DNA of 64,000 bases from Turicibacter sanguinis (GTDB lineage Bacteria > Bacillota_I > Bacilli_A > MOL361 > Turicibacteraceae): contig NZ_CP053187.1 in assembly GCF_013046825.1 (NCBI RefSeq), positions 465,501 through 529,500 of the forward strand, in the 5' to 3' direction. Positions 35,633 to 58,245 of the stretch are shown one piece after another. Position 1 is the first letter of the stretch, and every line of letters begins with the position of its first letter. The notes beneath the pieces are model-generated. The model had not been told where the DNA came from and searched no databases. It saw nothing but the letters and a program-made list of their open reading frames with translations. The position numbers and the translations under genes were made by a program.

Positions 35633-38470
35633 CTATTCAAGTCCTCTAACTTGAATTTCATAAATACGTACAGCTGAATCTGAGTTTTGTGTTGGTTTGA
35701 TGGCACTAACTCTTACATATTGAGCCTCAACAGCTTTGAAGGTATCAACGGTTGTCGCCGCAGAATTTCTTGTGATATTCACCACTTCTTCAAAGTTTTC
35801 TCCATCTTGACTCACTTCAATTGTATAAGCTTTGGTGTTCATTCCATCACTTTCTCCACCCGCTTCGGCATGAGCCATGTACACTTCACTGATTGTCTTT
35901 AATTCTCCAAGATCAATCACAATCCAGTGTGGCGCAGTCCCTGTTGCACACCATTTCGTATCAAGTAATCCATCAACCGCAAATTGAGGCGCCTCATTGT
36001 TATTTACAAATCCTGACGCTTCTGTCGCTTTTCCTTCTGATAAATTCACAAGTTCTGTTGCAGCATTAGAAACGGTAATAATTTCTTCTTTTGTGACACT
36101 GACTTCTCCTGATTTATTTTTAGCAGTTAATGTAACAGTATAGACACCTTCTTCTGCAAAATTGATCGTCGGTGTTACATCTGTACTACTTTCAATATTA
36201 GCACCTTTAAATTCCCATACAAATTCTTCAGCATTTTGAGATGAAAGATTTGTAAACGTCACATCATCCCCTGGTGCAACTAATGTTCTTGAAACACTGA
36301 ACTCAGCTTTTGGCATACTGTTATCAGGCCATTCCATTGTTGCTTTTGCACTTGTTCCTTGCTCTCCTAAGTTATTAACTGCTACAACTTCAAAGTTCGT
36401 TTGATTTGACTCACCCTCGCGTGGAAGTGCGTTATAGAAGAATGCAGTTGTTGCAGACGTTCCTAAGAATGATTTTGTTCCATCTTGGTTAATTTGATAA
36501 ATTTCATAATGTCCATTTGAATCAGCATTTCCTTCCCAAGATAACTTAACTCCAGCATACATTGCATCTTCATCAAATAAATAATCTTCAACTTTTAAAT
36601 TGCTAGCTGTTGCATTTGTTGCATCAGACTCTCTTGCAATCGTCATATTACCGATGCTTAGTCTTAATCCGCTCACTTCTTCTTTTGAAGAGATAGCATA
36701 TGAAATATTTTTAATAGCTTTTCCTGATAACTTAGACACATCATAAGATAATGTTGTCCACTCATCCACTGATACTTTTTCTTTAGATTTTAACGTTTCA
36801 GTTGTTCCATCATGGAAATCTAACACCAAATCAAAATCAACATTTTCAGATGACTTAATCGCTGTTGTAAATGACACCTTATCTTCAAGTGTTAAATCGG
36901 CACTAAATAATTTAATTGTAGATTTTTTTCCTGCTTCCATATTTCCAAGGAGTTTGATTGAGTTTCCACCATAAAAGGCATTTGCGTAATCAATATCGGC
37001 ACTTAAAGTATTCGCCCCTTCGTTTTCAATCATCCAGCGGTAAGTAGGTAAAACATCTGCCATACTACGGTTATTCCAATCTGTTTCAGACACTTTTTCA
37101 CCATCAATGAAGAAATTATACCCATGTCCTAAATTGAAGTTCGTCATAAATGGTAACGAATTAACAACGCTTTTCTCAACAATATATGTTGAAACTCCTC
37201 GCCATTCACGATCAGTTGCACTTGTTGAAACTGACGGATCTCCATTTTCATTTACCCATAAACGATTTTCTTTGGCATGGAAATCATCAATTGAACTAGC
37301 AGAAGCATATGTCCAACTTGGGCAATATAAACCTAAAGATGTATTTCCTGCCTCAAATAATTCCCAGCGAATTGGTGTATTAACTCCATTGGCTTGAACA
37401 TCAATTCCGGCATAAATAACATTTGGATTAATTCCTAACTCTTGTGCTTTTTGTGTTGAAGCTTCAAGTAAATTTTCTGGTGCTAATGTGTCTGTTGTCC
37501 ACCAGAAGTTTAAGAACATACTATCGGCAATCATTTCTTGGTTATCACCAACTAAGAAGAATTCATTTTCTTCAGTTAAAGCATTTTGCCAATCCATTTC
37601 CCCCTCTTTAGTCATTGAATCATACCACATGATTTCAAGACTATCCCCTGCTTTTGCTTTAAATTCAACAATTAACTCTTTCATTAACTGTGCATGTTCA
37701 GGTGTCAGAGGTGTTTCTTCGTTTCCTTCTGTTTCTTGATTGATAAACCATCCATCAAATCCATAAGACTGTGCGACTTCGATTAATTTATCAACAATCG
37801 GGAAGCTTCCATTTTCATCTTTTGTTAAGAATTCATCTAACCAAGCCATTTTTCCACCATGTGCTTCCATTGGGAAAAAGACTGTTCCAAGAACCGGAAC
37901 TCCATTTTTATGAGCAGCATTTGTAACATCAGCCGTTGGAGGAACAATTAACCCCTCACCTGAAGATCCTCCCCAATAAACCATCTTGTCAACATATTGC
38001 CAATATGAGAAGACATTTGAAGAAATTTTATTACTTCCTTGAGATGGATTTCCACTTGTACTATTATTCATAATAGAAATCGCAACAACTTCACGCTCTT
38101 TGTCTTGCGTTGCGTTAACTGTCTCTAATCTATCTTTACTTACACGGTCTGCTAAGGCGACTGTACTTCTATTATATTCAAAATGCTTATCACTACTTGG
38201 CGTCCATTCTAATAATTCAGCTGGGAACCAATGAGGAGCCGTTGCTAAGTTATTCATAATTAATTCTGTGTTTGCAACTTCTGGACTAATGGTATAAATA
38301 CTTTGAGGTTTTATTTCATGAACTTCCTCAGTTGTACTTTGTCCTTGCTCAACTGAAGCACATCCTACTAGTGCAGTCCCAACCGTAAATGTTAAAAAGA
38401 CAGGCATTAAAACTTTTGATCCAGTTAGATTTTTCTTTGAAGACTTTTTAATTCTTTTATAACGTGTCAT
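35633..38470 (-). CDS. Endo-beta-N-acetylglucosaminidase, GH85, surface lipoprotein
   Basis: A 945-residue lipoprotein (lipobox LVGC, Cys37). Residues about 75-440 are a GH85 barrel with YWQYVDKMVYWGGS and the catalytic WFINQETEGN (Asn244, Glu246), which by substrate-assisted catalysis cut between the two core GlcNAc residues of N-glycans. A beta-sandwich region follows (about 450-720), then a PKD-type domain (about 725-805) and a C-terminal F5/8-type C (CBM32-like) domain (about 810-945) with LGELKTISEVYM and the closing RIYEIQVRGLE. Anchored outside, it would release glycans from host glycoproteins for the importer of this locus. It is the last gene of the unit headed by two ROK kinases. 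Confidence 0.93.
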   Translation of the reverse strand: MTRYKRIKKSSKKNLTGSKVLMPVFLTFTVGTALVGCASVEQGQSTTEEVHEIKPQSIYTISPEVANTELIMNNLATAPHWFPAELLEWTPSSDKHFEYNRSTVALADRVSKDRLETVNATQDKEREVVAISIMNNSTSGNPSQGSNKISSNVFSYWQYVDKMVYWGGSSGEGLIVPPTADVTNAAHKNGVPVLGTVFFPMEAHGGKMAWLDEFLTKDENGSFPIVDKLIEVAQSYGFDGWFINQETEGNEETPLTPEHAQLMKELIVEFKAKAGDSLEIMWYDSMTKEGEMDWQNALTEENEFFLVGDNQEMIADSMFLNFWWTTDTLAPENLLEASTQKAQELGINPNVIYAGIDVQANGVNTPIRWELFEAGNTSLGLYCPSWTYASASSIDDFHAKENRLWVNENGDPSVSTSATDREWRGVSTYIVEKSVVNSLPFMTNFNLGHGYNFFIDGEKVSETDWNNRSMADVLPTYRWMIENEGANTLSADIDYANAFYGGNSIKLLGNMEAGKKSTIKLFSADLTLEDKVSFTTAIKSSENVDFDLVLDFHDGTTETLKSKEKVSVDEWTTLSYDVSKLSGKAIKNISYAISSKEEVSGLRLSIGNMTIARESDATNATASNLKVEDYLFDEDAMYAGVKLSWEGNADSNGHYEIYQINQDGTKSFLGTSATTAFFYNALPREGESNQTNFEVVAVNNLGEQGTSAKATMEWPDNSMPKAEFSVSRTLVAPGDDVTFTNLSSQNAEEFVWEFKGANIESSTDVTPTINFAEEGVYTVTLTAKNKSGEVSVTKEEIITVSNAATELVNLSEGKATEASGFVNNNEAPQFAVDGLLDTKWCATGTAPHWIVIDLGELKTISEVYMAHAEAGGESDGMNTKAYTIEVSQDGENFEEVVNITRNSAATTVDTFKAVEAQYVRVSAIKPTQNSDSAVRIYEIQVRGLE

Positions 38471-38535: not shown

Positions 38536-39486
38536 TTAATTTAATGCTTGATACTCTACAAGTGCTAAAGCAATTGCACCGACAACGCCAGCTTTTCCAC
38601 CTAATTGTGCTTTTTCAATTTTACAGTTTTCACGAATAGGTGCAAGGCATCTTGCATTCATTTCTTCATTAATTTTTTCAAAAACGATTGGCCCTCCGTT
38701 TGTAACCCCACCGCCAATCACAATTTTATCCGGATCAAAAATATTAGCGCAGTTAGCAACTGCAATTCCTAAATACGATAAAGTTTCAGAAAGAATTTGA
38801 TTAGCAACTGCATCACCATTTGTTGCTTCAGTGAAAACTTCTTTAGCTGTCACGGTTTCATACTTACTTAACGTTGTTTCCATTCCTGAACTAACACTAT
38901 CCCTAGCCATTTTTTCAATATAAATTCCTGAACTCATCGATTCGACACATCCACGATTTCCACACCCACATGCTCTACCATTACGATCAACTGTCGAATG
39001 TCCAACTTCAAGTGCATTAGATGTACTTCCTCTGTACAGTTTTCCATTTAAAATAGCTCCGCCACCAACACCGGTACTTGCTGTAATATAAACCATATTT
39101 TCGCATCCTTTACCAGCTCCGAAAATATATTCACCAAGAGTTGCAGCATTCGCATCATTATCTAAAAAAGTAGGTATTTGAAATTCATTTTTAATCGCTT
39201 CAACGACATTAAAATTTCTAATTGGTAAATTAGGAGGTGAAACAATTAATCCATTTTTCACATCTAGTGGACCTGGAGATCCAATTCCAATCGCCTTAAT
39301 TCTATCTAAATTAATACCTGTTGAAACTTTTTTAATCGAACTAATCATTTTCTCAATAATTTGTTCCGGTCCTTTACTTGCTTCAGTCGGAACAACTTCT
39401 TCATTTAAGATTTCCCCGCGTTCATTAGCGATAGCCGTATAAATTTTAGTTCCACCTAAATCGACACCAATATATAGTGGCTCCAT
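38536..39486 (-). CDS. ROK-family sugar kinase (glucokinase/N-acetylhexosamine kinase type)
   Basis: A 316-residue ROK kinase. Phosphate-binding IGVDLGGTKIYTAIANE starts the protein; the ROK signature with zinc ligands CGCGNRGCVES is complete, with the zinc His in EVGHSTV. Such enzymes phosphorylate glucose, mannose or N-acetylhexosamines with ATP in the cytoplasm. In this locus, GlcNAc or mannose freed from N-glycans is the expected substrate. It lies between the second ROK gene and the GH85 gene, 23 and 65 bp away, probably in one transcript. Confidence 0.93.
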   Translation of the reverse strand: MEPLYIGVDLGGTKIYTAIANERGEILNEEVVPTEASKGPEQIIEKMISSIKKVSTGINLDRIKAIGIGSPGPLDVKNGLIVSPPNLPIRNFNVVEAIKNEFQIPTFLDNDANAATLGEYIFGAGKGCENMVYITASTGVGGGAILNGKLYRGSTSNALEVGHSTVDRNGRACGCGNRGCVESMSSGIYIEKMARDSVSSGMETTLSKYETVTAKEVFTEATNGDAVANQILSETLSYLGIAVANCANIFDPDKIVIGGGVTNGGPIVFEKINEEMNARCLAPIRENCKIEKAQLGGKAGVVGAIALALVEYQALN

Positions 39487-39509
39487 ATAATCCCCTCACA
39501 AATCACATT

Positions 39510-40412
39510 TTATTTACTTTCTAAGTTATTCGATTGATGTTCACTTATAAAATTAGCTAATGCTCCTATTAGGTTTGCATCTCCTTTATGGGTACAAGCC
39601 CCTAAGACAGGTTTAACTTTAGCAATTTCAATTTTTTCTAATAAATAATCGATTTTTTCGTTAATCTTTTCGATGAAATCTTCTCGTTGTGAAATAGCTC
39701 CACCGATTAAAATAATTTCTGGATCATAAAAGTACTGCATATTAAAAATTCCTTTAGCCAAGTTTAAATAAAATCGGTCTAAAATATTTTGACAAAATTC
39801 ATTTCCCTTAGTGGCTTCTTCAAATACTTTAATTCCATCATAGCTATCATCTTGAAAATGGGCTCTGGCTTTTCTAACAAAAGACATTGTTGAAGCAACA
39901 TTACTGAAATTATAAAACTCTCCATCTCTTTCTTCCATTAACATATAGCCAAATTCTCCACCATGAAGGTTTTTTCCATGATGAATTTTTCCATCATGAA
40001 TAATAGCTCCACCAAGTCCTGTCCCACAAACTAAAAATAAAACATCACTAAATGATTGACCTGAGCCATTAAACACTTCGGCAAGTGCTGCACAATTCGC
40101 ATCATTTTCTATACTGATTGGTAAGTTTGTCGCTTCCCCCATAATTTTTTTCCAATTATGACCATGAATGCATGGGATGGCACTTGAACCATTTACCATG
40201 CCAGTCTTGGAATCAACAGCGCCTGGTGAACTAATACTAACTCCCGTAACCTTATACTGTTGTTTAGCTTCTTCAACAAAGCTTACTAAACTATTAATCA
40301 AACCATTAAAGTCATGATTTACTTCTAGAGAAGTTTTTTCTACTATCTTCCCCTGTAAGTCTAAAACACCAACTTTGATTGCTGTCCCTCCGATATCTAT
40401 ACAAGCTATCAC
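39510..40412 (-). CDS. ROK-family sugar kinase lacking the zinc cluster
   Basis: A 300-residue ROK protein starting IACIDIGGTAIKVGVLDLQG, with ISSPGAVD, IENDANCAALAE and the GTGLGGAIIHDGK nucleotide loop. Where the other ROK kinase has the CxCGxxGC zinc motif this one reads GEFGYMLMEERDG, so the cluster is absent, as in a subset of ROK enzymes such as beta-glucoside and some N-acetylmannosamine kinases. The start is GTG 40412, as the nearby ATG is out of frame; RBS GAGGAGGAG. Together with the other kinase it suggests two different sugars are handled. Confidence 0.88.
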   Translation of the reverse strand: MIACIDIGGTAIKVGVLDLQGKIVEKTSLEVNHDFNGLINSLVSFVEEAKQQYKVTGVSISSPGAVDSKTGMVNGSSAIPCIHGHNWKKIMGEATNLPISIENDANCAALAEVFNGSGQSFSDVLFLVCGTGLGGAIIHDGKIHHGKNLHGGEFGYMLMEERDGEFYNFSNVASTMSFVRKARAHFQDDSYDGIKVFEEATKGNEFCQNILDRFYLNLAKGIFNMQYFYDPEIILIGGAISQREDFIEKINEKIDYLLEKIEIAKVKPVLGACTHKGDANLIGALANFISEHQSNNLESK

Positions 40413-40495: not shown

Positions 40496-41947
40496 TTACT
40501 TAGAAGCTTTCCATTCATCAATTTGTCGTTGCATTTCTTCAATGATTTTATCTAAACCTTGTTGTTTTAATTTAGTATTTAATTTTTCTAAATACTCATC
40601 TACATCCACTGATCCACTGTAGATAGTCGCTTTAAACTCTTCTAAAACGTTGTTAACAGCCGCAATTTCTGTTGAAACTGATTTTGAATTGAATTTGAAT
40701 CCAAGTGCTGGTGATGATTTTGCAGCATCATTGAAATCTTGGAATTCATCCCATTTAGTTTCAGGTTCGTTTTCTGTTACATAAGTAATAAATAAGTTTC
40801 CTAAAGAGAAGTAAGGAACGTCATATCCTTTTTTATTAATTAATTTGATTTGATTATCTCCAATTTTTTCATAGTGAACACCTTCAAGACCATAGTTAAT
40901 CATATTACGGATTGTTGGGTCAGTATTTAATAAGTTTAAGAACTCAATTGCTTTTTCTTTATTTTTTGAGTTAGCAGAAACAGCAACCATTGATCCAGTT
41001 GTTGAACCATTTGTAATCCAAGTGTTAGTAATAGGTGTAGAAACAACTCGGTAACCTAAGCTTTCACTCCAGATTTCATCTGCATATGGTTGACCATCCG
41101 CTTTTGTTACAAGACGTTTGATTGATTTATCATCTTGAGCTGTTGCAGCATCAGCGTTGATATATCCAGCTTGATAGTATCTTCTTAATGTTTCTAAATC
41201 ACGTTTCATTTCATCTGTTTCAAACATGTTCATGACTTTTAATTCACCATTGTCATCTAAAGAAATTCCAACAGGATCTACTAATTGATCGAAGAATACT
41301 GTATATGAGAATCCTTTTGTGATGTATAAAGGTACAACATCAGGTTCATTTTCTTTAATCACTTTTAACCATGGTTCTAAATCTTCTAACGCATGAATTT
41401 CATCGACTGGAATATCATACTTATCAACATACTCCTGAGTGAACACCCACATCGGTGCTACTCCTAATTCTTTTTGAGTTGGAACAGCATAAGTTTTTCC
41501 ATCTACTTTAGCTCCATCCCAGAATCGTTGGTCGATCGCTTCTTTCATATCTTTTCCTATTGTATCTAAATAAGGATCTAAGTCTAAAAAGGCACCTTTA
41601 CGAGCATTTCCCAAATAATCTCCTGCCCATGAACATGTGAAGGCTAAGTCAAAATCTTCACCAGAGTTCACGATGACAGACATTTTTTGACTGTAATCAT
41701 TGAAATCAATGAATGTCATATCTAGATTTACCCCGATTTTTTCTCCTAAATATTCATTCGCTTTTTCAATAACTTGAGCGTAATCTTTTGGTTCCCCTCC
41801 AATAGTGTAATACTTTAATGTGGTGATTTTTTCACCATTAGATGAAGTTGAAGATGATGATGATGTTGAGTTTCCACTACATCCAGCTAATAATGCAGTA
41901 GCAGCCATCATGCAGGTTGTAAATGAAATAAGTTTTTTAAATTTCAT
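40496..41947 (-). CDS. Oligosaccharide ABC transporter substrate-binding lipoprotein (LplA/YtcQ type)
   Basis: A 483-residue lipoprotein (lipobox LLAGC, Cys about residue 23) with a Ser-rich linker. The large size and C-terminal segment FLNLLNTDPTIRNMINYGLEG place it with binding proteins for complex oligosaccharides that pair with LplB/LplC permeases. Those permeases are encoded at 50954-52937, nine kb upstream on the same strand. In the locus it is the obvious carrier for glycans released by GH85. Two cre-like sequences lie in its 5' region. RBS GGGGAGGAATAG. Confidence 0.92.
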   Translation of the reverse strand: MKFKKLISFTTCMMAATALLAGCSGNSTSSSSSTSSNGEKITTLKYYTIGGEPKDYAQVIEKANEYLGEKIGVNLDMTFIDFNDYSQKMSVIVNSGEDFDLAFTCSWAGDYLGNARKGAFLDLDPYLDTIGKDMKEAIDQRFWDGAKVDGKTYAVPTQKELGVAPMWVFTQEYVDKYDIPVDEIHALEDLEPWLKVIKENEPDVVPLYITKGFSYTVFFDQLVDPVGISLDDNGELKVMNMFETDEMKRDLETLRRYYQAGYINADAATAQDDKSIKRLVTKADGQPYADEIWSESLGYRVVSTPITNTWITNGSTTGSMVAVSANSKNKEKAIEFLNLLNTDPTIRNMINYGLEGVHYEKIGDNQIKLINKKGYDVPYFSLGNLFITYVTENEPETKWDEFQDFNDAAKSSPALGFKFNSKSVSTEIAAVNNVLEEFKATIYSGSVDVDEYLEKLNTKLKQQGLDKIIEEMQRQIDEWKASK

Positions 41948-42117: not shown

Positions 42118-43983
42118 CTATATTCTTCGCAAAAATTTACATAGATATTTAATCACTTCACTAATACGGATTAATTCACTTTCTTTATTTCTTTCCCTCC
42201 AAATAATCTGATACTCATAAAACCATCGCTCTATTTTTAGTGCCAAATTGTTAGCTTCACTCACAGGATCAGCATCCTCACGATTAAATTCATGTCTTAA
42301 CAAATACAAAGAAAAATCATTTAATAGCTCAATGCCTTGAGCTGAAATTAAAAATTCTCTAAAATCTAACTGATTTTCTGATTTGATTTTCGGTAAATAA
42401 GTATTAATTTTTCGATAAATTTCTTGAGCCTTTAGAACATCTTCTCTAATTTGTTGTGGATTAAAACGAGTATACTCCTCAATGATAATATCTCGCATTG
42501 GAGTATTAAATTTCTCTTTCCACTTCACAATCTCATACCATGTCATCTGCTGACACTCAGATAAATCCGCTAATAATGAAACAATACGACACGATTGATC
42601 TCGGTACTCTAATAAAGAAATAGCTTTAAAATGCTCGTCTTTACTTCTTTCATCTAATGGATTCCAGCTAGTGGCAGCTGCATAAATCATCAATGGCATC
42701 GAGTTTGCAAATAAATTAAGATGTCCATAATCTCCCCAATCTGTTGTTAAGACCCCCTCGGCTTCATATTTAACCGCATAAGTTACCATTCTTCTAATGT
42801 TCTCATATCCTTTGTTCATTAAATTCATTAAATGGTTCCATCCCGCTACACCAGGGCAGACATACTGTGGCATCCCACTTTTTGCAATTTTTTTCGTATC
42901 TGTTTCTTCCACTAAATAATCATAATTCCAATTCAAACAAGTTGGGTGTGACTCAATTTTAGATAGTAAATGCTCATACCTTAAAACCACATCTCCCCAA
43001 AATAAAACATCTTTATCGTGATTTTTAGCAATTTGAATAATCTTGTTTAAAAACTCAACATAAAGTTCACCATCATTCAATGTATTTAATAAATGATGAC
43101 TCTTTCCCTTCCCTAAATCAAAGGTTTCATCACAGCCAATATTAAACTTCTTCGAACTAAACAGCGGTAAAACATCCGCCATCATCTTTTCAACAAGCTC
43201 TAAACTAGCCTCATTACTCACATCAAGCGTATGATGTGCCATACGATCATAAAACGAAAACTCAGACTCATCATCTAGCTCACATAAATGCTTGTAACTC
43301 TCACTTCGCAATACCTCATACAAATGCCCAAATAACGCAAATGATGGCACCAATTCCACATGTCGCTTTTGACAATAATCATCTAACAAAAGAATTTCCT
43401 CAGCCGTTAACGGATCTTTATCATACCAAATCTCACTAAACCCGGTGAAGGCAAAACTATGCTCAATATAAAGCTGAAGCTGATTTATTTTATAGTGGGC
43501 CAGTTTATCAACCAATGACTTTAACGTTTCTAAAATCGGAACCTTCCCTCGCGTCACATCGTGATAAAAACCACGGTTTCTAAAATAAGGGCAGTCCTTA
43601 ATTTCAACACCTGATAATTCTACACCCTCATTCTTAATGATTTGGAGCAACGTTTGAGTCCCATAAAATAACCCTTTTGATGTCGTTGCCTTAATCTCAA
43701 TATAAGTTTCTTCAATAATTAAATCATATGCTTCTTCCTCTAATTCATCTACTTTAATGAATCGAATGGATGGCGTACTATAATTTCTTTCAAAACATTT
43801 TGTCACGCTCAAACGAAACCCGATTAACTCATGAAGTTGTTGCTGTAATAATAAAGCTGACTCTAAATCCTGACTATTACACTGACTCGATAAAATGATT
43901 TCAGTATTCGTCCCTAAAAAGAACTTCGTTGCTTCCTTTTTCACATAACTTCTTGGCATTGGTTGTAAATACAAATGACTCAT
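42118..43983 (-). CDS. Beta-N-acetylhexosaminidase, GH20
   Basis: A 621-residue GH20 enzyme removing terminal beta-GlcNAc or GalNAc. Residues about 1-125 are the GH20b N-terminal domain (LLQIIKNEGVELSGVEIKDC), then the barrel begins NRGFYHDVTRGKVP; the catalytic Asp-Glu pair is in FNIGCDETFDLGKG. The C-terminal 150 residues are helical. No signal peptide, so it acts in the cytoplasm on imported glycans, consistent with trimming antennal GlcNAc. It follows the 789-residue unknown protein by 6 bp, so the two are co-expressed. Confidence 0.92.
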   Translation of the reverse strand: MSHLYLQPMPRSYVKKEATKFFLGTNTEIILSSQCNSQDLESALLLQQQLHELIGFRLSVTKCFERNYSTPSIRFIKVDELEEEAYDLIIEETYIEIKATTSKGLFYGTQTLLQIIKNEGVELSGVEIKDCPYFRNRGFYHDVTRGKVPILETLKSLVDKLAHYKINQLQLYIEHSFAFTGFSEIWYDKDPLTAEEILLLDDYCQKRHVELVPSFALFGHLYEVLRSESYKHLCELDDESEFSFYDRMAHHTLDVSNEASLELVEKMMADVLPLFSSKKFNIGCDETFDLGKGKSHHLLNTLNDGELYVEFLNKIIQIAKNHDKDVLFWGDVVLRYEHLLSKIESHPTCLNWNYDYLVEETDTKKIAKSGMPQYVCPGVAGWNHLMNLMNKGYENIRRMVTYAVKYEAEGVLTTDWGDYGHLNLFANSMPLMIYAAATSWNPLDERSKDEHFKAISLLEYRDQSCRIVSLLADLSECQQMTWYEIVKWKEKFNTPMRDIIIEEYTRFNPQQIREDVLKAQEIYRKINTYLPKIKSENQLDFREFLISAQGIELLNDFSLYLLRHEFNREDADPVSEANNLALKIERWFYEYQIIWRERNKESELIRISEVIKYLCKFLRRI

Positions 43984-43989
43984 CCCCTT

Positions 43990-46359
43990 TTATAAAATTG
44001 AAATCTGATCCACAAATAAGAATGTTGGCCCCTCACCTGGCAAAATGCTCCACGGTGGACACACTCTTTGATTTTTAGCAAAAACTCTAATATACCTGTA
44101 ATTCATTGCTTTTTGAACCTGAATATTTGTGACGGCAATCTCTTTTCTTTCAATCGATTCATCACAATTAATCATCTCGATTATCTCAAAGTTTATCCCA
44201 TCAAGTGACCCCTCGACTAAAACATCTTTGGGATAATAAATCCAGGCACGAGTATCTTGTAAAAAGCCTACTGTTATTTGATTAAACTGTGTTGCCTTTT
44301 CTAAATCTACCACAACATCTAAATCATCATGATAGCCAAGCCATGCACCGTCTCGATAATCCTTTGTTCCTTTTTTACCATCAATTAACGTCTCTACTCC
44401 ATTTGGATTATATTTCTTTATCTCCACCGGTAATGTTTGTCCTTTAATCTTTTTAATCGGTTGAGACTGGAAATAGCCCGCATCTTCTTCCACACTTTCC
44501 TTCATTCCATCAACAAAGATTTTAGCCCTAATCTGCCCTTCCTGTGTTAAAACAATCGGTTTTTGATAAAGTAAGGACTGTTTGGTTGGAGGTGTCCCAT
44601 CTAACGTATAATAAATTTGACCTTCATTATTAGGATTTTTAATCCTAAAAACTTCCGATTCATAAATTCCTGTTAATGATACTTTAGGATCAATGACCGG
44701 TTTGAATGCTCGTTTCATAAAATGATTTTGTTTATTTCGAGGCGTATAATCCTCAATCATATTTGAATTTAAAAAAGCTTGCGATACTAAAGACTGCTGT
44801 TCACTAAATCTCATTTCTAACCCTTCATTTTCTGAGGCAATGGCTAAATCAAAGTCAGCTAAATTTAAAATTTCACCTTGATCTACAAACAAAGAATAAT
44901 CAAATTGTTCATGTGTGAAATTGAAAACATTGTTTTTAATCCCTTTTAAAACTGGACAATATTTCATGGCTAATAAAATTCTTGAATGTTCAAACGCCTG
45001 ATTCGTTTTAATCTGAAGCTTATTTTCTTCACACGTAATCAAGACGCTTATGCCATTATTTAATAGCCAGGTGATTCGGTAATCACAATCATTTAATTTC
45101 TCGAAACGAATTGGATTCCCTTCAAGTTCCGTTAGTAATCCTTGAGACTTGAGCTCAAAGAACTGAATTTTTGCTCGAACGTCATCTGTACTAAATTGAT
45201 GCCCATCCACAACAGGTAGCGTATCAAAAATACTTTCTTCTTCCGTTAAGACGTCTTCATAATAGCGTGAGCGATAGTTTTCATTGAAGAGATGTAAATC
45301 TCGAATAATTAAGCTGCCATTTTCAAAAAGGAAACTTAATCGATAAAAACGACTATTATACCAAAGGGTTTTTAAATTCTCTTCGGTATTCCAATCTTTT
45401 GTGGCCGCATAGGTTGTGACCGGTGTTAGCTGATATTTTCGTTTATACCAAGCGGCGCTTTCAGCTAACGTTTGAATTCTTAACTGATAAGGTTCTTCAA
45501 TTTCAGCTAGATGTTTCATTTGAAGCTCATATCCTTTTGACATCGTATCCCATAAAAACGTATTTTCTTGTCCTGTTTGAACATATGAAAATCCAATCGT
45601 ACTTTCCATCACTTGCCTTTGAAAAAACCACTCCACCCAATCTCTATTTTGAGCAATGGTAGCAGCAGGCTCGAGTGTATAAACACCACAGACTGATTTT
45701 CTGATTCCATCTTCAAAGGCATAAATCGGATCAGCGCCTAACAATCTGAATATTGGTAAATCTAACTGATGCTCCTTCGTTTGAGCTGGCATGAATTCAT
45801 TAAATAAACTTGGATAATAGGCCTGGTTATAATATCCTCCTGATAACGTAAAACCATCAGTCCCAATTTGATCGCGACAAATCGCTGCCCCTTCAATCTG
45901 ATACTTGTCTTTAAAATGTTTTAACGTGACAATATCTATTACCCAAGATCCAACTGTTTTCGGATAATAACCAAAGATAGATTTAAAATCTTCCATGTAA
46001 ACATCAACCATTTTAATACGTTCTTCTTTTGTATAGGCTAATGAATAGCCTTTATTCACATGGTCATCAACTGGTGTTTCACCTTTCCATTTAACCGAAG
46101 CTTTACTGGCTAGTGATTCATCGATTTCCCACCAGCAGGCGATTTCATCAAACTCATCTAAGTTATCTTTTAAGAGCGCCACATAGTTTTCATCCATCAA
46201 TGCATCATACTTTAACGCATAAGTGGCCGAAAAGCCATAACGTTTCGTTTCTTCAATCTCATACAAAACAGTTTCAAGCTCCTCTTTCACAAACTGGCCT
46301 GATGGATAAACTGTTTTTCGAATAAAATTATAAATATTAACAATGGCTACATGCTCCAT
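43990..46359 (-). CDS. Unclassified 789-residue putative glycan-active enzyme
   Basis: I do not recognise a named family. Residues about 1-330 look like an alpha/beta barrel of the deacetylase/GH57/GH38-like kind (acidic patches near residues 70-80 with CWWEIDES, then FGYYPKTVGSWVIDIVTLKHF). Residues about 330-580 are beta-rich. About 590-650 is a chitobiase C-terminal-like (Fn3-associated) module (YYTLDGTPPTKQSLLYQKPI), and the last 135 residues form an F5/8-type C sugar-binding domain. It has no signal peptide, so these modules are probably cytoplasmic, which is odd. It lies between GH38 and GH20 and is coupled to GH20, so it is likely an N-glycan-processing enzyme. Confidence 0.6.
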   Translation of the reverse strand: MEHVAIVNIYNFIRKTVYPSGQFVKEELETVLYEIEETKRYGFSATYALKYDALMDENYVALLKDNLDEFDEIACWWEIDESLASKASVKWKGETPVDDHVNKGYSLAYTKEERIKMVDVYMEDFKSIFGYYPKTVGSWVIDIVTLKHFKDKYQIEGAAICRDQIGTDGFTLSGGYYNQAYYPSLFNEFMPAQTKEHQLDLPIFRLLGADPIYAFEDGIRKSVCGVYTLEPAATIAQNRDWVEWFFQRQVMESTIGFSYVQTGQENTFLWDTMSKGYELQMKHLAEIEEPYQLRIQTLAESAAWYKRKYQLTPVTTYAATKDWNTEENLKTLWYNSRFYRLSFLFENGSLIIRDLHLFNENYRSRYYEDVLTEEESIFDTLPVVDGHQFSTDDVRAKIQFFELKSQGLLTELEGNPIRFEKLNDCDYRITWLLNNGISVLITCEENKLQIKTNQAFEHSRILLAMKYCPVLKGIKNNVFNFTHEQFDYSLFVDQGEILNLADFDLAIASENEGLEMRFSEQQSLVSQAFLNSNMIEDYTPRNKQNHFMKRAFKPVIDPKVSLTGIYESEVFRIKNPNNEGQIYYTLDGTPPTKQSLLYQKPIVLTQEGQIRAKIFVDGMKESVEEDAGYFQSQPIKKIKGQTLPVEIKKYNPNGVETLIDGKKGTKDYRDGAWLGYHDDLDVVVDLEKATQFNQITVGFLQDTRAWIYYPKDVLVEGSLDGINFEIIEMINCDESIERKEIAVTNIQVQKAMNYRYIRVFAKNQRVCPPWSILPGEGPTFLFVDQISIL

Positions 46360-46439: not shown

Positions 46440-49133
46440 TTATGATAAATGTGCGAGTGTTAAAATTTCTTTTTTATGTAACTTCATTTCACTTGTAGTT
46501 TTTTCTAAGTGTTCTTCTTCTAATAAATCCGTTTTGTATAAGGTATCCTCAGTTTCTAATTTTAGCATCGCTTCTTCATTCGAAACGTTATACCATCTTG
46601 TAATGAGTTCATTATTTGAAGTTGAAACCTTTAAAGCAGATGGAACAACCTCTAAGTATTCTCCTTTTAAAAACTGATAGGTTGATGATAATGCCCCCTC
46701 TTGTACTGGAAGGCCTGCGCTTAGCCAATCTACTTGATATTGGTAAGCCTCTGTATAAGATTGATAACGTGACTTAGCATCTCCATGAAGAATAATTGCA
46801 AATTCTACTTCATGCTCTCCTAAACATTGAGCATCTGGTGTTAAAAATACTCCCCAGTCACCTAATTCACGAACACCACGATGTAATGTCACAGCAATCG
46901 TATTAGATTGTTGACCTAACACTTCATATTCATTAAGTCCCTTATTTGCAATCGTCACTCCGGCTGTTTCATCGTGAACATTAATAAAGGCTTGTTGATG
47001 TTGAGCATTGCATGGATTCTCCCATACAGCATGTGGGAATGTTTCACGTTTTGCAACCTCAAAAATTGAGTCTGCATAGTGATATGGTGTGTCAATATTC
47101 GTTTCAAATAAGACGCGTAATCGATGATCAAGGGCTTGATTATTGAATTTAGTCACAGCTTTAATCACACGATTTTGACGTTCAATTGTGTATAACGTTT
47201 CGATTTCAAATGGAATCAGTTCTTCTCCTCGTGAGGCTTTACGGTATTTGAATTCAACTAAGTCTTGAATTTCTTGATCTAAAATTTCATTTGCTTTTGA
47301 TGGAATCATTAACGTGTGACTAACTTTTACTACCGTACGATAAGATTGATCTTCAACTACTTCAATATTTGCCACACTCTCGCGTGTTGTAATTGGCGTA
47401 TCATCTTTTGGCATGAAGTGAATGTATTCATTTCCAATATCTCCACAATCTTCAAATATTCCGAAGTTATCATATGTTTTTTCTGTTGCTTTATCGAAAA
47501 TACGTAATGATCCATTTTCATTAAAGTGAACCGTCATAAATGGTGTTTCAACTGTTAAATTCTCTTGGATTAAAGAAGATTCTCCTTCTTTTACTTCTTT
47601 TGTCTCTACAAGTGCGAAACTTTCATATCCAAATGCCGGAATTTCTTGAACTTCTAAGGTCACTTTGACACGTTTTGCAATGTATGGTTGGCGGAAACGA
47701 TCTTTTGGTAAGTCGTAATTAAAAGCATTCGGTAAAACTTCAATGGTAGCTGGAATTTTATTTCCATGCACATCGACCACTTCATACGTTGGAAGTTGGC
47801 GTTCATGCATTTGTTTGACTACTTCAACAACTGGTCCCTCGCTAAAATACATTTTAGCGACTTCAAGTTCTGTTTCAACAACGCCTGAACGATTCCATCC
47901 GCTTGTATTTGCAATGACAAATGGTTTAACCTCTTGATTTTCTTTTTTGAATGCCATTGTATTTATTTGGCTAACTAAATAATCCATGCTTTCATCGATG
48001 ATATGTTTAGCAACCGACTGCACTTTTTCAAAACGAGTCACCATTTCACGATGTACCTCATCGACACTACATCCACAAATACTATCATGAGGATGATTTT
48101 CCATTAGCAATTTCCATGCGTATTTAAATAAATGATGTGGATATGGTTTTCCTTCTTTATGCGCAATCGTTGCTAACGGTTCAGCCATTTTTTCAAGCAT
48201 CATTTGGCACTTAGCATTCATTTGTTTAATATAAATGCGAGCGGAAGCAGTATTAGCTAATGTATACCATCCATCCGTTTGTTGACTACGTAGCTCTCCT
48301 GTAATCGTCGTCATATCATCTGCTAATTTTTCATGAAGTGCCTCAATATATTCTTCAAAATTCGAATGCTTGAATTCTACATCTGGATAAAGTTCTTGAG
48401 CCGTTTTAATTGCCTGTGATAAATCCGTTTGAACCGGTTGATGGTCACATCCATTCATAAATAAAAGATGTGGGGTACTTGCATATTTCGTTGCGTCTGC
48501 TAATTTTTTTTCCCAATATTTTTTAGCTTCTTCTTTATCAACCGGAACTTCAAGCCCATTACTGTACCAGTTCGCAAATAAAATAGCTAATACTTTTGAA
48601 CCATCCTCTGATTCCCAATACATTTCCGAATAAGGTGATTCATAAGCATCATTATCACTGACCTCATTGTTAAATCCTGTTGGTTTAACACCTCGCCCAA
48701 AAACTGCTGTTTCAATTCCAGCCTTTTTTAAAATTTGTGGCGCTTGTCCCATATTTCCAAAAGAATCAGGGAAATATCCAACTTTACAAACTTCCCCATA
48801 CTCGCGAGCTAAGTCATGCCCCATTTGTAAGTTACGAATATTTGCTTCACTACTTGTTAAAAACTCATCTTGAAGGATGAACCAAGGTCCGACATGAATA
48901 CGTTTAGCTTCAATTAATTTTTTTAAACGTTCTTTATTTTCTGGTCGAACTTGTAAATAATCTTCAATCAGTAAGGTTTGTCCATCTAAATGGAAACTTT
49001 TATAGTCGGGATCCGTCTCTAATGTATTAATTAAAGTATCCATAAATTCAATTAATAACATGTGATGCTTTTCATATGGTAAATACCATTCACGATCCCA
49101 ATGACTATGTGAAATAATATGCGCTGTTTTCAT
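46440..49133 (-). CDS. Alpha-mannosidase, GH38
   Basis: An 897-residue GH38 retaining alpha-mannosidase. The N-terminal zinc motif is HSHWDREWYLP and the nucleophile segment YFPDSFGNMGQAPQIL, followed by the helical bundle (NHPHDSICGCSVDEVHREM) and the long beta-sandwich C-terminal half. It is cytoplasmic, and would remove alpha-mannose from imported N-glycans. An open frame with a TTG start (49154) exists, but its first codons contain the RBS AAGGAG, so ATG 49133 is chosen. It follows GH125 closely and shares its terminator. Confidence 0.95.
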   Translation of the reverse strand: MKTAHIISHSHWDREWYLPYEKHHMLLIEFMDTLINTLETDPDYKSFHLDGQTLLIEDYLQVRPENKERLKKLIEAKRIHVGPWFILQDEFLTSSEANIRNLQMGHDLAREYGEVCKVGYFPDSFGNMGQAPQILKKAGIETAVFGRGVKPTGFNNEVSDNDAYESPYSEMYWESEDGSKVLAILFANWYSNGLEVPVDKEEAKKYWEKKLADATKYASTPHLLFMNGCDHQPVQTDLSQAIKTAQELYPDVEFKHSNFEEYIEALHEKLADDMTTITGELRSQQTDGWYTLANTASARIYIKQMNAKCQMMLEKMAEPLATIAHKEGKPYPHHLFKYAWKLLMENHPHDSICGCSVDEVHREMVTRFEKVQSVAKHIIDESMDYLVSQINTMAFKKENQEVKPFVIANTSGWNRSGVVETELEVAKMYFSEGPVVEVVKQMHERQLPTYEVVDVHGNKIPATIEVLPNAFNYDLPKDRFRQPYIAKRVKVTLEVQEIPAFGYESFALVETKEVKEGESSLIQENLTVETPFMTVHFNENGSLRIFDKATEKTYDNFGIFEDCGDIGNEYIHFMPKDDTPITTRESVANIEVVEDQSYRTVVKVSHTLMIPSKANEILDQEIQDLVEFKYRKASRGEELIPFEIETLYTIERQNRVIKAVTKFNNQALDHRLRVLFETNIDTPYHYADSIFEVAKRETFPHAVWENPCNAQHQQAFINVHDETAGVTIANKGLNEYEVLGQQSNTIAVTLHRGVRELGDWGVFLTPDAQCLGEHEVEFAIILHGDAKSRYQSYTEAYQYQVDWLSAGLPVQEGALSSTYQFLKGEYLEVVPSALKVSTSNNELITRWYNVSNEEAMLKLETEDTLYKTDLLEEEHLEKTTSEMKLHKKEILTLAHLS

Positions 49134-49157
49134 AACGTTCTCCTTTTTATTCAATCC

Positions 49158-50953: not shown

Positions 50954-51964
50954 CTATTCTTTTACTGCCCCTACTGTAAGTCCACTTACGAAATATTTTT
51001 GGAAGAATGGATACGCAAATACGATTGGTAATGTTGTGATTACAACAATGGCCATTTTTGCTGTATCTTTTGGTAAATTGTTAGCTACACTTACCCCATC
51101 CGTTCCAAGCATAGCAGCATTATTAGCTAAGAATTCCATTGTTCCCTCAATCTTAATTAATAAATATTGTAGCGGAACTAATGCACTTCTATCGATATAA
51201 AGCATCGCATTGAACCAGTCATTCCAAAATCCTAGTGTTAAGAATAATCCAATTGTTGCAATGGCTGGAAGTGATATTGGTAATACAATTCGTGTAAATA
51301 CCGTAAGTTCTGAAGCCCCATCAATTTTAGCTGATTCAACAATAGCATCTGGAACTGTTGTTTTAAAGAACGTTCTTAAAATGATAATGTGGAATGAGCT
51401 AACACAAATAGGTAGGATTAATGCCCATAACGTATTTTTAATTCCAAGGAATCGTGTATTTACAAGGTATGAAGCTACCATCCCCCCTGAGAATAACATT
51501 GGGATGAAAATTAGTTTTGTAAAGAATTTTCGATAAGCGAAGTTCTTTCTTGATAAAGCATAAGCAAAACTTGTCATAATAACAAGACCAAGTAAAGTCC
51601 CGCTAATGGTAACTAAAATTGTAATTCCATATGCTTTAAATATTTGAGGCCCTGTTCCTCCAGCTCCAAAGATATATTTATAAGCATTTAAGCTCCACTC
51701 TTCTGGCCAGAATTTATATCCATTCATTTGAAGACTTTGTTCACTGGTAAAAGAGATGATGATAACAAATATAAATGGAATAATACACATTGCCGCAAGC
51801 GCCCCAAATAAAATATTTAGCGCAATATTAGCTGGTTTTGAAATTGAATTGAATTTATTTTTCTCCTCATCTTTTGCTAAAAAGATTCTTTTGAAAAATG
51901 ATTTTTTTTCTTCAAGAACTACCTCTTCTTGTTGTTGAAATTTATTTTCTTTGATAATCTCCAT
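50954..51964 (-). CDS. Oligosaccharide ABC permease (LplC/YtcP type)
   Basis: A 336-residue permease with an unusually long hydrophilic N-terminus (about 60 residues, rich in Glu and Lys) before the first membrane segment, six segments, the coupling loop ESAKIDGASELTVFTRIVLP and the family ending FFQKYFVSGLTVGAVKE. ATG 51964 has AAAGGTGGTGT before it and is preferred over ATG 51997, which lies within the end of the upstream permease gene. It works with the LplB-type partner and the binding protein at 40496; no ATPase is encoded in the locus. Confidence 0.94.
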   Translation of the reverse strand: MEIIKENKFQQQEEVVLEEKKSFFKRIFLAKDEEKNKFNSISKPANIALNILFGALAAMCIIPFIFVIIISFTSEQSLQMNGYKFWPEEWSLNAYKYIFGAGGTGPQIFKAYGITILVTISGTLLGLVIMTSFAYALSRKNFAYRKFFTKLIFIPMLFSGGMVASYLVNTRFLGIKNTLWALILPICVSSFHIIILRTFFKTTVPDAIVESAKIDGASELTVFTRIVLPISLPAIATIGLFLTLGFWNDWFNAMLYIDRSALVPLQYLLIKIEGTMEFLANNAAMLGTDGVSVANNLPKDTAKMAIVVITTLPIVFAYPFFQKYFVSGLTVGAVKE

Positions 51965-51983
51965 CTTTAATACACCACCTTTT

Positions 51984-52937
51984 TTAGAAGAATGCATTCT
52001 CTTCGTCTACTTTTCTAACAATAGCATTTGTTCCAAGAATTAAGATTAATCCAACAAATGACTGATATAAAGCTGCAGCTGAACTCATACCGATATTTCC
52101 TAAGTTTGTTAATCCACGATATACATACGTGTCGATAACGTTTGTAACAGGATATAACGCCCCTGAGTTTTTAGGTAATTGATAGAACAATCCAAAGTCT
52201 GATCTAAACATTCCACCTACTGCTGTAATGAACATGATAATCATAACTGGCTTTAATAATGGAATGGTAATGTATTTAACCTGTTGCCATTTTGAAGCTC
52301 CATCAATCATTGAGGCTTCGTATAATGATTTATCGATTCCACAAATTGAAGCTAAATAAACAACTGTTCCATATCCAATTCCTTTCCACTGACTCATAAA
52401 GATAATAATGAACGGCCAATATTTCGCCTCAGTGTACCAAGAGATTCCGTCTTGTCCAAATGATCTTAACATCGTATTTACTAATCCTTTTTCAGGACTT
52501 AAGAATGTGTATAAACAGTAACTTACGATAACCCATGATAAGAAATATGGTAAGAACATCGCACTCTGATAAAACTTAGATAATTTTTTATTTAGTAACT
52601 CTTTAAGTAAAATAGCTAACGTTACTGGAAGTACAATCCCTAAAACAATGAAAACTAAGTTATAAGCTACTGTATTTCTAGTAATAACCCATGCATCAGT
52701 ACTTTTAAATAAGAACTCAAAATTCTTTAATCCTACAAATTCACTCTTAATTAAACTTTCAAAGAATCCACCATGAATTCTCCAATCTTTAAATGCTATT
52801 AAGATTCCGAACATAGGTAAGTAAGCAAACGCTATAAACCAAAGTGTTCCAGGTATTGTCAAGCCTAATAACTCCTTGTTATCTTTGAACTTTTTCCATC
52901 TAGAGTTTTTCTTTTTAACTTTTACTTCATCGGCCAT
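51984..52937 (-). CDS. Oligosaccharide ABC permease (LplB/YteP type)
   Basis: A 317-residue permease with a charged N-terminus, the family phrase LLGLTIPGTLWFIAFAYLP, six membrane segments and the coupling loop EASMIDGASKWQQVKYITIP. LplB-type permeases import oligosaccharides such as glycan fragments. It is first in a two-gene operon. The strong RBS (AGGAGGGGG) is separated from a cre-like box by only a few bases, suggesting repression by road-block. Confidence 0.94.
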   Translation of the reverse strand: MADEVKVKKKNSRWKKFKDNKELLGLTIPGTLWFIAFAYLPMFGILIAFKDWRIHGGFFESLIKSEFVGLKNFEFLFKSTDAWVITRNTVAYNLVFIVLGIVLPVTLAILLKELLNKKLSKFYQSAMFLPYFLSWVIVSYCLYTFLSPEKGLVNTMLRSFGQDGISWYTEAKYWPFIIIFMSQWKGIGYGTVVYLASICGIDKSLYEASMIDGASKWQQVKYITIPLLKPVMIIMFITAVGGMFRSDFGLFYQLPKNSGALYPVTNVIDTYVYRGLTNLGNIGMSSAAALYQSFVGLILILGTNAIVRKVDEENAFF

Positions 52938-53133: not shown

Positions 53134-54654
53134 TTAATAGTTTTTCATTTCCCTTAACGTCGATGGTGAGACACCAAAGAACTTTTTAAACTTACGATAA
53201 AAATAACTTGAATCTGTATAGCCAACTTCCTTAGCAATATCATTAATTTTCATATTCGTTTCTAAAATGAGCTCCTTAGCTTTCATATTCTTCGTTTTAT
53301 TCAAATAATCCGAGAATGAACATCCAACTTCCTTATTAAAAATTTGTCCTAAATAAGAGCTATTAATGTTATATTGATATGCCAATGTTTTTAAGCTTAG
53401 TTCTTCATAGTATCTCTCATTAATCGTATTCACGATTTGTTGCACAACAGGACTATACTTTATCGTATCCTGTGTCATCACTTCCATAAACTCGTCTAAC
53501 TCACTTAAAATAAATGTCTTAATACTTTCTCGCGTATTCTCATGACATAACTCAATAATCGTATCACTCAAACTTTCTCGTGTGTATTTTTTATCCACCT
53601 TAAACTCTTCTTTAACCTTATCCATCAGCAAAACAACCTTAATTGAAAAATCATAAATATTCTTAGGCGTTAATTCTTTATTCTCAAAAACTTCATCAAC
53701 GTAAACTTTTAACGCTGCGCTATTTTTTTCAATCATTAACTTATTGATTTGCTCGATTTCATCCCTAAACTTCACATCTTTATGTTTAATAACCGAAATC
53801 ATCTTTTCGTTAACAACACGATTCATCCCTTCAGTCAACATATACTTCTTCAACTTTTTAGCCACCATATAACTTTTGCGTAAATCATCAATCATATTGA
53901 CACTTGATCCTACTGAAATGAAAATATCATACTTTAGCTCAGTTTGCAGTAAATCTCTTAGTTCTCGATACTCCTCTAAGATTTCATCATCAGTCTTCTC
54001 TTTATCCCAGCTATTAATCACTATAATTTGCCCATCAAATTGATACAACACTTCACACTGACTTTTAAACACTGACTCAACAATCGGATTAATATTAATA
54101 TATACCTCTTTATCCTTTTTACCATTAATGAAAATATTCGTGACCGTATATTTTTCTTTATAAAAATCAACATACATATCATCTTTTATTCCAATGACTT
54201 CTTTCACATCATACTTTCCATTTAAAAAGGCTAGTAACTTTCCTGTTTTATCTAACCCTCTATTAATAAATTCTTTCTCCTTCGCGATATTATCTACTAA
54301 TTTTTTTAACGCTACTTCTAATTCTTCTTCATCAACTGGTTTTAAAAGATAATTTTCAACCCCATATTCAATTGCTTTTTTAGCATAGGCAAATTCATCA
54401 TAACCACTTAAGAGAATGAATTTTACCTTCTTGCCCATCTCATTAATTTCTTGAACTAACTCTAAGCCTGTTTTAACTGGCATATTGATATCTGTTACAA
54501 TAATATCGACTGGATTATCTTTAAACTTTCTAATCGCTTCTTCACCATTTTCAGCAGATTGAACGACTTCAAGCCCTAGTGCTTTCCAATCAATAATTGA
54601 CATTAATCCTTCCGTAATAAAAATTTCATCATCAACTAACATAACTTTTTTCAT
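53134..54654 (-). CDS. YesN-type response regulator (receiver plus AraC HTH)
   Basis: A 506-residue response regulator: receiver domain at residues 1-120 with DD at 8-9, phospho-acceptor Asp55 in VTDINMP and the Lys of LLKPVDEEE; a middle segment with no clear family; and a C-terminal AraC-type double HTH (AKEVGYTDSSYFYRKFKKFF). Such regulators activate nearby carbohydrate uptake genes when their kinase senses sugar. It overlaps the kinase stop by 4 bp. The permease operon lies directly downstream, making the N-glycan locus its most likely regulon. Confidence 0.95.
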   Translation of the reverse strand: MKKVMLVDDEIFITEGLMSIIDWKALGLEVVQSAENGEEAIRKFKDNPVDIIVTDINMPVKTGLELVQEINEMGKKVKFILLSGYDEFAYAKKAIEYGVENYLLKPVDEEELEVALKKLVDNIAKEKEFINRGLDKTGKLLAFLNGKYDVKEVIGIKDDMYVDFYKEKYTVTNIFINGKKDKEVYININPIVESVFKSQCEVLYQFDGQIIVINSWDKEKTDDEILEEYRELRDLLQTELKYDIFISVGSSVNMIDDLRKSYMVAKKLKKYMLTEGMNRVVNEKMISVIKHKDVKFRDEIEQINKLMIEKNSAALKVYVDEVFENKELTPKNIYDFSIKVVLLMDKVKEEFKVDKKYTRESLSDTIIELCHENTRESIKTFILSELDEFMEVMTQDTIKYSPVVQQIVNTINERYYEELSLKTLAYQYNINSSYLGQIFNKEVGCSFSDYLNKTKNMKAKELILETNMKINDIAKEVGYTDSSYFYRKFKKFFGVSPSTLREMKNY

Positions 54655-57437: not shown

Positions 57438-58244
57438 TTAACATGTTTTAATTAATTCTAAGTTACCTTCAATTGTATATTTAATTCCTTTTGGTAAATA
57501 GACTGTTTCTTCTGGATTTAATATAATCGTTTGATCATCAGTTTTCATTACACCGCATCCTTTAGTTGCTGTATAAGTATAAAAATCACCACATACTTCA
57601 TCAGAATATTGTCCATCAACAATAATTTTTTCAACATTGAAATATGGAGTTTCTAACTTAGTGAAGTTTTCGATTTTACCACCATTTGTTTCTGGGTTAT
57701 AATCGATGACTTCTAATGCTTTTTCGATATGCATTTCACGGTCACGTCCCCAATCATAAAGACGGTAAGTGACATCGCTACTTTGTTGGACTTCAAGTAG
57801 TTTTATACCACCTTTAATCGCATGAATGGTCCCCGCTGGAATATAAATCATATCTCCAGCTTTTACACTGATATCTCCTAAGTAATCTGCTACGCTTCCC
57901 TCTTCAAGGATTTTAGCGAATTTTTCTTTGTTTAATCCATCTTTAATTCCACAGATTAGTGAAGCTCCTTCTTCTGCTTCTAAGATGTACCAGCATTCTG
58001 TTTTTCCGTTGTCATTTTCATACTTACGTGCAAACTCGTCACCAGGATGAACTTGAACTGATAATGATTCATCTGCTTTAATGATTTTGATTAAAATCGG
58101 TAAATCTTTCTGTAAATAATCATGTAAATTTTCGTTAGTATCTACTAAAGTCGAGCATCCGTTACGATGTGTAGAGAGATTCCATTTTTCATAACCCCAA
58201 ACTTTTTCGCTATAAAATGGATTTAATTTTATAATTTTTGTCAT
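57438..58244 (-). CDS. manA: Mannose-6-phosphate isomerase, class I
   Basis: A 268-residue cupin-type isomerase interconverting mannose 6-phosphate and fructose 6-phosphate. Zinc-site motifs are LSVQVHPGDEFA, TECWYILEAEEG and IPAGTIHAIKGGI; the family opening LNPFYSEKVWGYEKW is present. It is shorter than the roughly 315-residue B. subtilis enzymes. ATG 58244 (RBS AAGGGGGATT) is chosen over an in-frame codon within the GH1 gene. It lies one base after the GH1 stop, so both are one operon. It completes the mannose route from the mannosidases and ROK kinases to glycolysis. Confidence 0.95.
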   Translation of the reverse strand: MTKIIKLNPFYSEKVWGYEKWNLSTHRNGCSTLVDTNENLHDYLQKDLPILIKIIKADESLSVQVHPGDEFARKYENDNGKTECWYILEAEEGASLICGIKDGLNKEKFAKILEEGSVADYLGDISVKAGDMIYIPAGTIHAIKGGIKLLEVQQSSDVTYRLYDWGRDREMHIEKALEVIDYNPETNGGKIENFTKLETPYFNVEKIIVDGQYSDEVCGDFYTYTATKGCGVMKTDDQTIILNPEETVYLPKGIKYTIEGNLELIKTC

Positions 58245-58245
58245 A

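What the first reader, a model, noticed from the sequence alone, without database searches (positions are those of the whole stretch)
43990..46359. 789-residue protein may be a new N-glycan-active enzyme family
It lies between GH38 and GH20 and is 6 bp from GH20. The N-terminal 330 residues look like an enzyme barrel, but I cannot place it in a family. It carries a chitobiase-like module and an F5/8-type C domain yet has no export signal. The locus lacks a clear enzyme for the beta-mannosyl-GlcNAc core, so an unassigned activity is available.
Basis: partly seen in the sequence, partly recalled or inferred. Interest (0 to 1): 0.72.

Follow-up and report, generated by a model that had tools for sequence, protein, structure and literature searches.

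The report
Candidate new N-glycan-trimming enzyme family
This bacterium has a cell-interior protein of an undescribed enzyme family, encoded inside a gene cluster that digests the sugar chains of glycoproteins; it probably removes one sugar just before the neighbouring hexosaminidase acts, but which sugar is still unknown.

Summary
The ORF is real: 789 aa, minus strand, 80 bp after GH38 and 6 bp before GH20. Residues 1-560 match no Pfam or NCBIfam model. The barrel is the most conserved part (74% identity between orthologues, against 44% for the next domain). Its only PDB relative is 3LM3, an uncharacterised putative glycoside hydrolase/deacetylase; a sequence profile (E=0.0013) and Foldseek on a low-confidence AlphaFold model both point there. 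No histidine is invariant, so the metal sites of GH38 and CE4 are absent. Ten orthologues were found in Clostridium: eight lie in the same N-glycan operon, two stand alone but keep GH85, GH125 and GH20 elsewhere. Carriers are enriched for GH85, GH125 and especially the GH20 (9 of 9). A distant 600-residue clade sits beside GH53 galactanases in all five loci sampled outside Clostridium. I read it as a cytoplasmic exo-glycosidase acting just ahead of GH20, with beta-1,4-galactose slightly favoured over the beta-mannosyl core. Against it, a GH1 plus mannose-6-phosphate isomerase could do that step, and many N-glycan operons lack this gene.

The parts
43990..46359 (-). the protein in question, 789 aa (P0001)
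45376..46359 (-). residues 1-328: unassigned beta/alpha barrel of the glycoside hydrolase/deacetylase superfamily; best conserved part (74% mean pairwise identity over residues 1-345 among 11 long forms)
44680..45375 (-). residues about 329-560: predicted beta-sandwich, no Pfam match, weakly conserved (44%)
44494..44664 (-). residues 566-622: chitobiase/hexosaminidase C-terminal module (PF13290)
44071..44400 (-). residues 654-763: F5/8-type C domain (PF00754); residues 579-788 match residues 565-773 of hexosaminidase 6Q63
42118..43983 (-). GH20 hexosaminidase without the C-terminal modules; Asp-Glu pair in IGCDETFD; no apparent signal peptide
46440..49154 (-). GH38 alpha-mannosidase, 904 aa
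49158..50450 (-). GH125 alpha-mannosidase
50954..52937 (-). two ABC transporter permease genes
53134..56402 (-). two-component system (AraC-type response regulator and histidine kinase)
40496..41947 (-). solute-binding protein with DUF3502
38536..40412 (-). two ROK-family sugar kinase genes
35633..38470 (-). GH85 endo-beta-N-acetylglucosaminidase with lipobox-like N-terminus, PKD and F5/8C domains
58246..59634 (-). GH1 closest to 6-phospho-beta-glycosidases 4B3K/5FOO; rival candidate for the mannosyl-GlcNAc step
57438..58289 (-). mannose-6-phosphate isomerase, overlapping GH1 by 44 nt

Best explanation
The protein is a cytoplasmic exo-glycosidase of a so far undescribed family in the (beta/alpha)7 glycoside hydrolase/deacetylase superfamily, used in N-glycan catabolism. 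GH85 at the surface releases the glycan, the ABC transporter imports it, and GH38 and GH125 remove alpha-mannose. This protein removes one non-reducing-end sugar so that the adjacent GH20 can remove the GlcNAc exposed or left behind. The slightly favoured sugar is beta-1,4-galactose of the LacNAc antenna. Catalysis would use two carboxylates without metal; the candidates are D210 (also Asp in 3LM3) and D163 (Glu in the distant clade). Shown by computation: the gene, its domains, its absence from the libraries searched, the operon linkage, the co-occurrence with GH20, and the lack of an invariant His. Inferred: that it is an active enzyme, the catalytic residues, the order of steps, and the sugar.
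For: Operon order is kept in the window and in Clostridium loci (L001-L004 and G413, G426, G434, G465), even though the window's GH38 is only 22-24% identical to the clostridial GH38. In 207 genomes of the family of C. sardiniense, carriers versus the rest have: GH85 in 7/9 against 11/198, GH125 in 8/9 against 19/198, window-type GH20 in 9/9 against 16/198. Within GH85-positive genomes GH20 is present in 7/7 carriers and 0/11 non-carriers (not corrected for relatedness). G602 and G603 keep the gene and the GH20 at separate places, so the link is not only physical. The barrel is far more conserved than the other domains. The distant 600-aa clade (hhalign 97.6%, E=4e-12) lies next to GH53 galactanases in five of five loci sampled outside Clostridium, with a galactokinase in one; I saw no GH42, GH2 or GH35 gene there. 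The C-terminal modules match those that follow the GH20 domain in 6Q63, which from memory is BT0459, an antennary GlcNAc hydrolase (PMC10154615).
Against: Long and short forms share only about 20-24% identity, so specificity may not carry over. The superfamily members known to me (GH38, GH57, GH119) cut alpha linkages; a beta-galactosidase would be unprecedented there. The host has GH2 beta-galactosidase-like genes elsewhere. G453 has the operon with GH20 directly after GH38 and no copy of this gene. One operon has a mannosyl-GlcNAc-type phosphorylase in the same slot, which favours the core instead. The AlphaFold model is weak (mean pLDDT 58 for residues 1-570, 47 for the barrel alone).
Confidence: 0.38

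Rival explanations
1. It is the beta-mannosidase (or phosphorylase) that splits Man-beta-1,4-GlcNAc(1-2) left after GH38 and GH125.
For: In G525 the same slot between GH38 and GH85 holds a GH130 very close to UhgbMP 4UDG (E=2e-165), described as a beta-1,4-mannosyl-N-glycan phosphorylase (PMC10619541). The order GH38-this-GH20 parallels the C. acnes triad GH38/GH5_18/GH20 (PMC6160142). The window genome has no GH130, and GH130 is absent from six of nine carriers in the clostridial set.
Against: Three carriers also have GH130, and GH130 is found in only 4 of 11 GH85-positive non-carriers, so there is no clean complementarity. The gene tracks GH20 rather than the core enzymes. GH1 plus isomerase offers another route. 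Distant relatives sit in galactan operons.
Confidence: 0.27
2. The core disaccharide is handled by another route: a ROK kinase phosphorylates it, the GH1 cleaves Man6P-beta-1,4-GlcNAc, and the adjacent isomerase takes mannose-6-phosphate. The 789-aa protein then does something else on the antenna. This is compatible with the favoured reading.
For: GH1 is closest to 6-phospho-beta-glycosidases 4B3K/5FOO and shares their WSWxNxYKNRYG segment. Its gene overlaps that of mannose-6-phosphate isomerase, and GH1 is followed by an isomerase also in G426. GH1 is in several N-glycan operons with and without this gene.
Against: Phosphorylation of the disaccharide is conjecture. GH1 is not seen near the gene in G404 or G465, and the G416 and G576 operons lack it.
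Confidence: 0.3
3. It is an alpha-glycosidase (for example on fucose or alpha-galactose), as the superfamily precedent suggests.
For: Foldseek of the model finds GH38 structures. No fucosidase was found among the operon genes I scanned.
Against: hhalign against GH38 gives no relation (0.2% probability). There is no zinc motif. The galactan context of relatives does not call for an alpha-fucosidase.
Confidence: 0.12
4. It is a metal-dependent deacetylase, or a non-catalytic sugar-binding partner of the GH20 that supplies the modules the GH20 lacks.
For: The barrel resembles polysaccharide deacetylases in Foldseek. Tight gene coupling and complementary module content relative to 6Q63.
Against: No invariant His in the 19-sequence alignment, so the deacetylase metal site is absent. 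A 74% conserved barrel with invariant Asp, Tyr and Arg is unlike a mere scaffold.
Confidence: 0.12

Closest known systems
PDB 3LM3, BDI_3119 of Parabacteroides distasonis, titled putative glycoside hydrolase/deacetylase (DUF3863/DUF3864 in Pfam, from memory)
   Same: Only PDB sequence found by the family profile (E=0.0013; score 21.6 against 5.0 for the best of 2000 shuffles) and top Foldseek match of the barrel model (rmsd 3.2 over 146 columns). Shares P183, P191 and D210.
   Different: This protein does not match the PF12979 model; the relation is remote; I know of no activity for 3LM3.
GH38 alpha-mannosidases
   Same: Overall barrel plus beta-sandwich layout by Foldseek; adjacent gene.
   Different: No sequence relation; lacks the His/Asp zinc site.
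CE4 and other polysaccharide deacetylases
   Same: Barrel fold.
   Different: No conserved His; long loop 162-202 with its own conserved motif.
GH130 UhgbMP, GH5_18 and GH2 beta-mannosidases
   Different: No Pfam match of this protein to those families.
6Q63 GH20 hexosaminidase (BT0459, from memory)
   Same: C-terminal chitobiase plus F5/8C modules.
   Different: No GH20 catalytic domain here; the neighbouring GH20 has that domain and lacks the modules.

Membership tests
GH38 | Pfam GH38 domains / sequence relation | tested here: not met
   No Pfam match; hhalign probability 0.2%.
GH38 | zinc site with His and Asp after the first strand | tested here: not met
   No invariant His in 19 sequences; the segment reads VNIYNFIRK or VNIIHRPEL.
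CE4 / NodB deacetylase | Asp-His-His metal triad | tested here: not met
   The segments after strands 1 and 3 carry no conserved His pair.
DUF3863 (PF12979) | Pfam model match | tested here: not met
   No hit at E<=10 for five members.
DUF3863 / 3LM3 superfamily | remote sequence and fold relation | tested here: met
   Profile E=0.0013, 0.013 with a larger alignment; top Foldseek hit, low-confidence model.
GH57 | Pfam model and catalytic Glu/Asp motifs | tested here: inconclusive
   No Pfam match; only weak Foldseek hits of the low-confidence barrel model; catalytic residues not mapped.
GH2, GH5, GH130 mannosyl-GlcNAc enzymes | Pfam model match | tested here: not met
GH20 | catalytic domain | tested here: not met
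   Only C-terminal modules shared.
New CAZy glycoside hydrolase family | demonstrated glycosidase activity of a member | not testable with these tools
   Needs an assay; dbCAN and CAZy were not available.

The most novel reading that the evidence does not exclude
A new glycoside hydrolase family of the (beta/alpha)7 superfamily that cuts beta-1,4 linkages without metal. One branch would act on N-glycans (Gal-beta-1,4-GlcNAc or Man-beta-1,4-GlcNAc) and a second branch on beta-1,4-galactan oligosaccharides, and the N-glycan branch may work as a complex with a GH20 whose C-terminal modules it carries.
Probability: 0.35. Interest if true: 0.7.

Novelty: new variant of a known kind. Interest (0 to 1): 0.45.

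Why it matters
If it is a glycosidase, it adds a family to the N-glycan tool kit of bacteria and probably gives a function to a set of unassigned superfamily proteins, including those beside galactanases. If it acts on Man-beta-1,4-GlcNAc it would be a fourth known solution to a step for which the literature lists only GH2, GH5_18 and GH130 (PMC10154615) and for which no enzyme had been named in S. pneumoniae as of 2017 (PMC5215778).

Tried and rejected
PHROGs and PADLOC were not run, as irrelevant. Searching the first 570 residues in viral contigs found no relative. The DUF3863 family model rang in none of 295 genomes nor in the controls, so it says nothing. A barrel-only AlphaFold run was worse than the longer one (pLDDT 47); I use its Foldseek result only because the top hit agrees with the sequence match. 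Complementary presence of GH130 and this gene was tested and not found. A6 against A5 is circular and ignored; A3 against A5 is the valid test. E78 looks invariant in MAFFT but not in the hhalign alignment, so it is not claimed as catalytic. Shorts-only and longs-only profiles did not find 3LM3; only combined ones did. The first gene-labelling script read a wrong record as the window and mislabelled neighbours; the corrected run is. The species of the window was not established.

Full report
Observation. It sits 80 bp after the GH38 gene and 6 bp before the GH20 gene, with no terminator-like site between them in a simple scan. Pfam finds a chitobiase-type C-terminal module at residues 566-622 and an F5/8-type C domain at 654-763, and nothing before residue 560, even at E<=1. 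NCBIfam finds nothing. I see no export signal in the N-terminus.

The locus. Going upstream to downstream on the minus strand there is GH1 with an overlapping mannose-6-phosphate isomerase, a two-component system, two ABC permeases, GH125, GH38, the protein in question, GH20, a DUF3502 solute-binding protein, two ROK kinases and a lipobox-bearing GH85. This matches known N-glycan import-and-trim systems of Gram-positive bacteria (PMC5215778).

Relatives. One scan of genome contigs gave four Clostridium orthologues, 50-55% identical over the query. Whole-genome searches gave nine carriers among 207 genomes of the family of C. sardiniense, three of which are among those four. With the fourth locus, L004, that makes ten orthologues plus the window. 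A distant clade of about 600 residues without the C-terminal modules occurs in other Bacillota and as a second gene in three Clostridium genomes. Profile-profile comparison of long forms with short forms, each alone, gives 97.6% probability and E=4e-12 over residues 1-384, so the two are homologous across the barrel.

Fold. AlphaFold on residues 1-570 with five sequences gave a weak model (pLDDT 58): alternating strands and helices to about residue 310, then a beta-sandwich at about 329-517. Foldseek returned GH38 alpha-mannosidases and polysaccharide deacetylases. A barrel-only run was weaker still (pLDDT 47), but its top match was 3LM3, a putative glycoside hydrolase/deacetylase of Parabacteroides distasonis. 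The 10-sequence profile, by sequence alone, found 3LM3 as its only hit in the PDB with E=0.0013, and 0.013 with a 19-sequence profile. A local test gave 21.6 bits against 5.0 for the best of 2000 shuffles. The two lines agree, so I place the barrel in that superfamily with fair confidence. It does not meet the DUF3863 model and has no sequence relation to GH38.

Active site. Nineteen aligned sequences share N8, R14, T46, D99, Y132, S138, D142, C161, N187, D210, Y259, K275, E300, D322, W333 and others, and no histidine. The His-based metal sites of GH38 and of CE4 deacetylases are therefore missing. D210 is also Asp in 3LM3, and position 163 is Asp in long forms and Glu in short forms; I propose these two as the carboxylate pair. 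This is inference. E78 is not claimed because its alignment is ambiguous. The barrel is 74% identical between orthologues, the following sandwich 44%, the chitobiase module 49% and the F5/8C domain 62%, as expected if the barrel is the working part.

Link to N-glycans. Eight of the ten orthologues lie in an operon with GH38 and GH20, and with the transporter genes where the fetched stretch reaches them. The window's own GH38 is only 22-24% identical to the clostridial ones, yet the gene follows both. Carriers have GH85 in 7/9 against 11/198 non-carriers, GH125 in 8/9 against 19/198, and the window-type GH20 in 9/9 against 16/198. Among GH85-positive genomes, GH20 of this type is in all seven carriers and none of eleven non-carriers. 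These counts ignore relatedness, so the p values (1e-9 to 3e-5) overstate the case. In G602 and G603 the gene and the GH20 stand alone at separate loci, which argues for a functional link.

Which sugar. For the core: in G525 the slot between GH38 and GH85 holds a GH130 very close to UhgbMP, a beta-1,4-mannosyl-N-glycan phosphorylase, and C. acnes has a GH5_18 beta-mannosidase in one locus with GH38 and GH20. Against the core: the gene is absent from many operons that must face the same disaccharide (G416, G418, G478, G576), and GH130 presence does not complement it. For the antenna: it tracks GH20, whose nearest modular relative (BT0459, if 6Q63 is that protein, as I recall) removes antennary GlcNAc. 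All five sampled short-form loci outside Clostridium carry GH53 endo-galactanases, one with galactokinase, and I saw no known beta-galactosidase beside them. A GH20-containing operon in G492 carries a GH35 beta-galactosidase after GH38. I give galactose a small lead over mannose. Both would be beta linkages cut by a superfamily known to me for alpha linkages, so an alpha-glycosidase is kept as a rival.

Modules. Residues 579-788 match residues 565-773 of the GH20 enzyme 6Q63 (E=3.8e-20), while the neighbouring GH20 matches the N-terminal part of 6Q63 and lacks those modules. The pair looks like a re-dealt domain set and may form a complex. This was not tested.

Verdict. The specific activity is open.

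Noticed in passing
57438-59634: GH1 gene overlaps a mannose-6-phosphate isomerase gene by 44 nt; with the ROK kinases this suggests a phosphorylate-then-cleave route for Man-beta-1,4-GlcNAc.
   Followed up: partly
L087:6718-7752 (G525): A UhgbMP-like GH130 sits between GH38 and GH85 in a clostridial N-glycan operon, in the slot the 789-aa gene occupies elsewhere.
   Followed up: yes
L040, L041, L042, L043-L047: A 600-aa relative of unknown function lies beside GH53 galactanases and ABC transporters (L043-L047), and beside a GH42/GH35-like or GH39-like protein in Clostridium (L040, L042).
   Followed up: partly
L115, L117 (G492, G516): A different N-glycan-type operon: ROK, GH20 and GH38; in G492 these are followed by GH35, GH29 and GH18, and a GH130 lies nearby in both genomes; looks suited to plant complex N-glycans.
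   Followed up: no
46440-49154: The window's GH38 (904 aa, mannosylglycerate-hydrolase-like by NCBIfam) differs from the 1043-aa GH38 used in the same operon position in Clostridium.
   Followed up: no
L035:6730-7206 and L037:6524-7000: A 158-aa gene (no Pfam match for the L035 copy) lies between the orthologue and GH20 in two Clostridium genomes.
   Followed up: no
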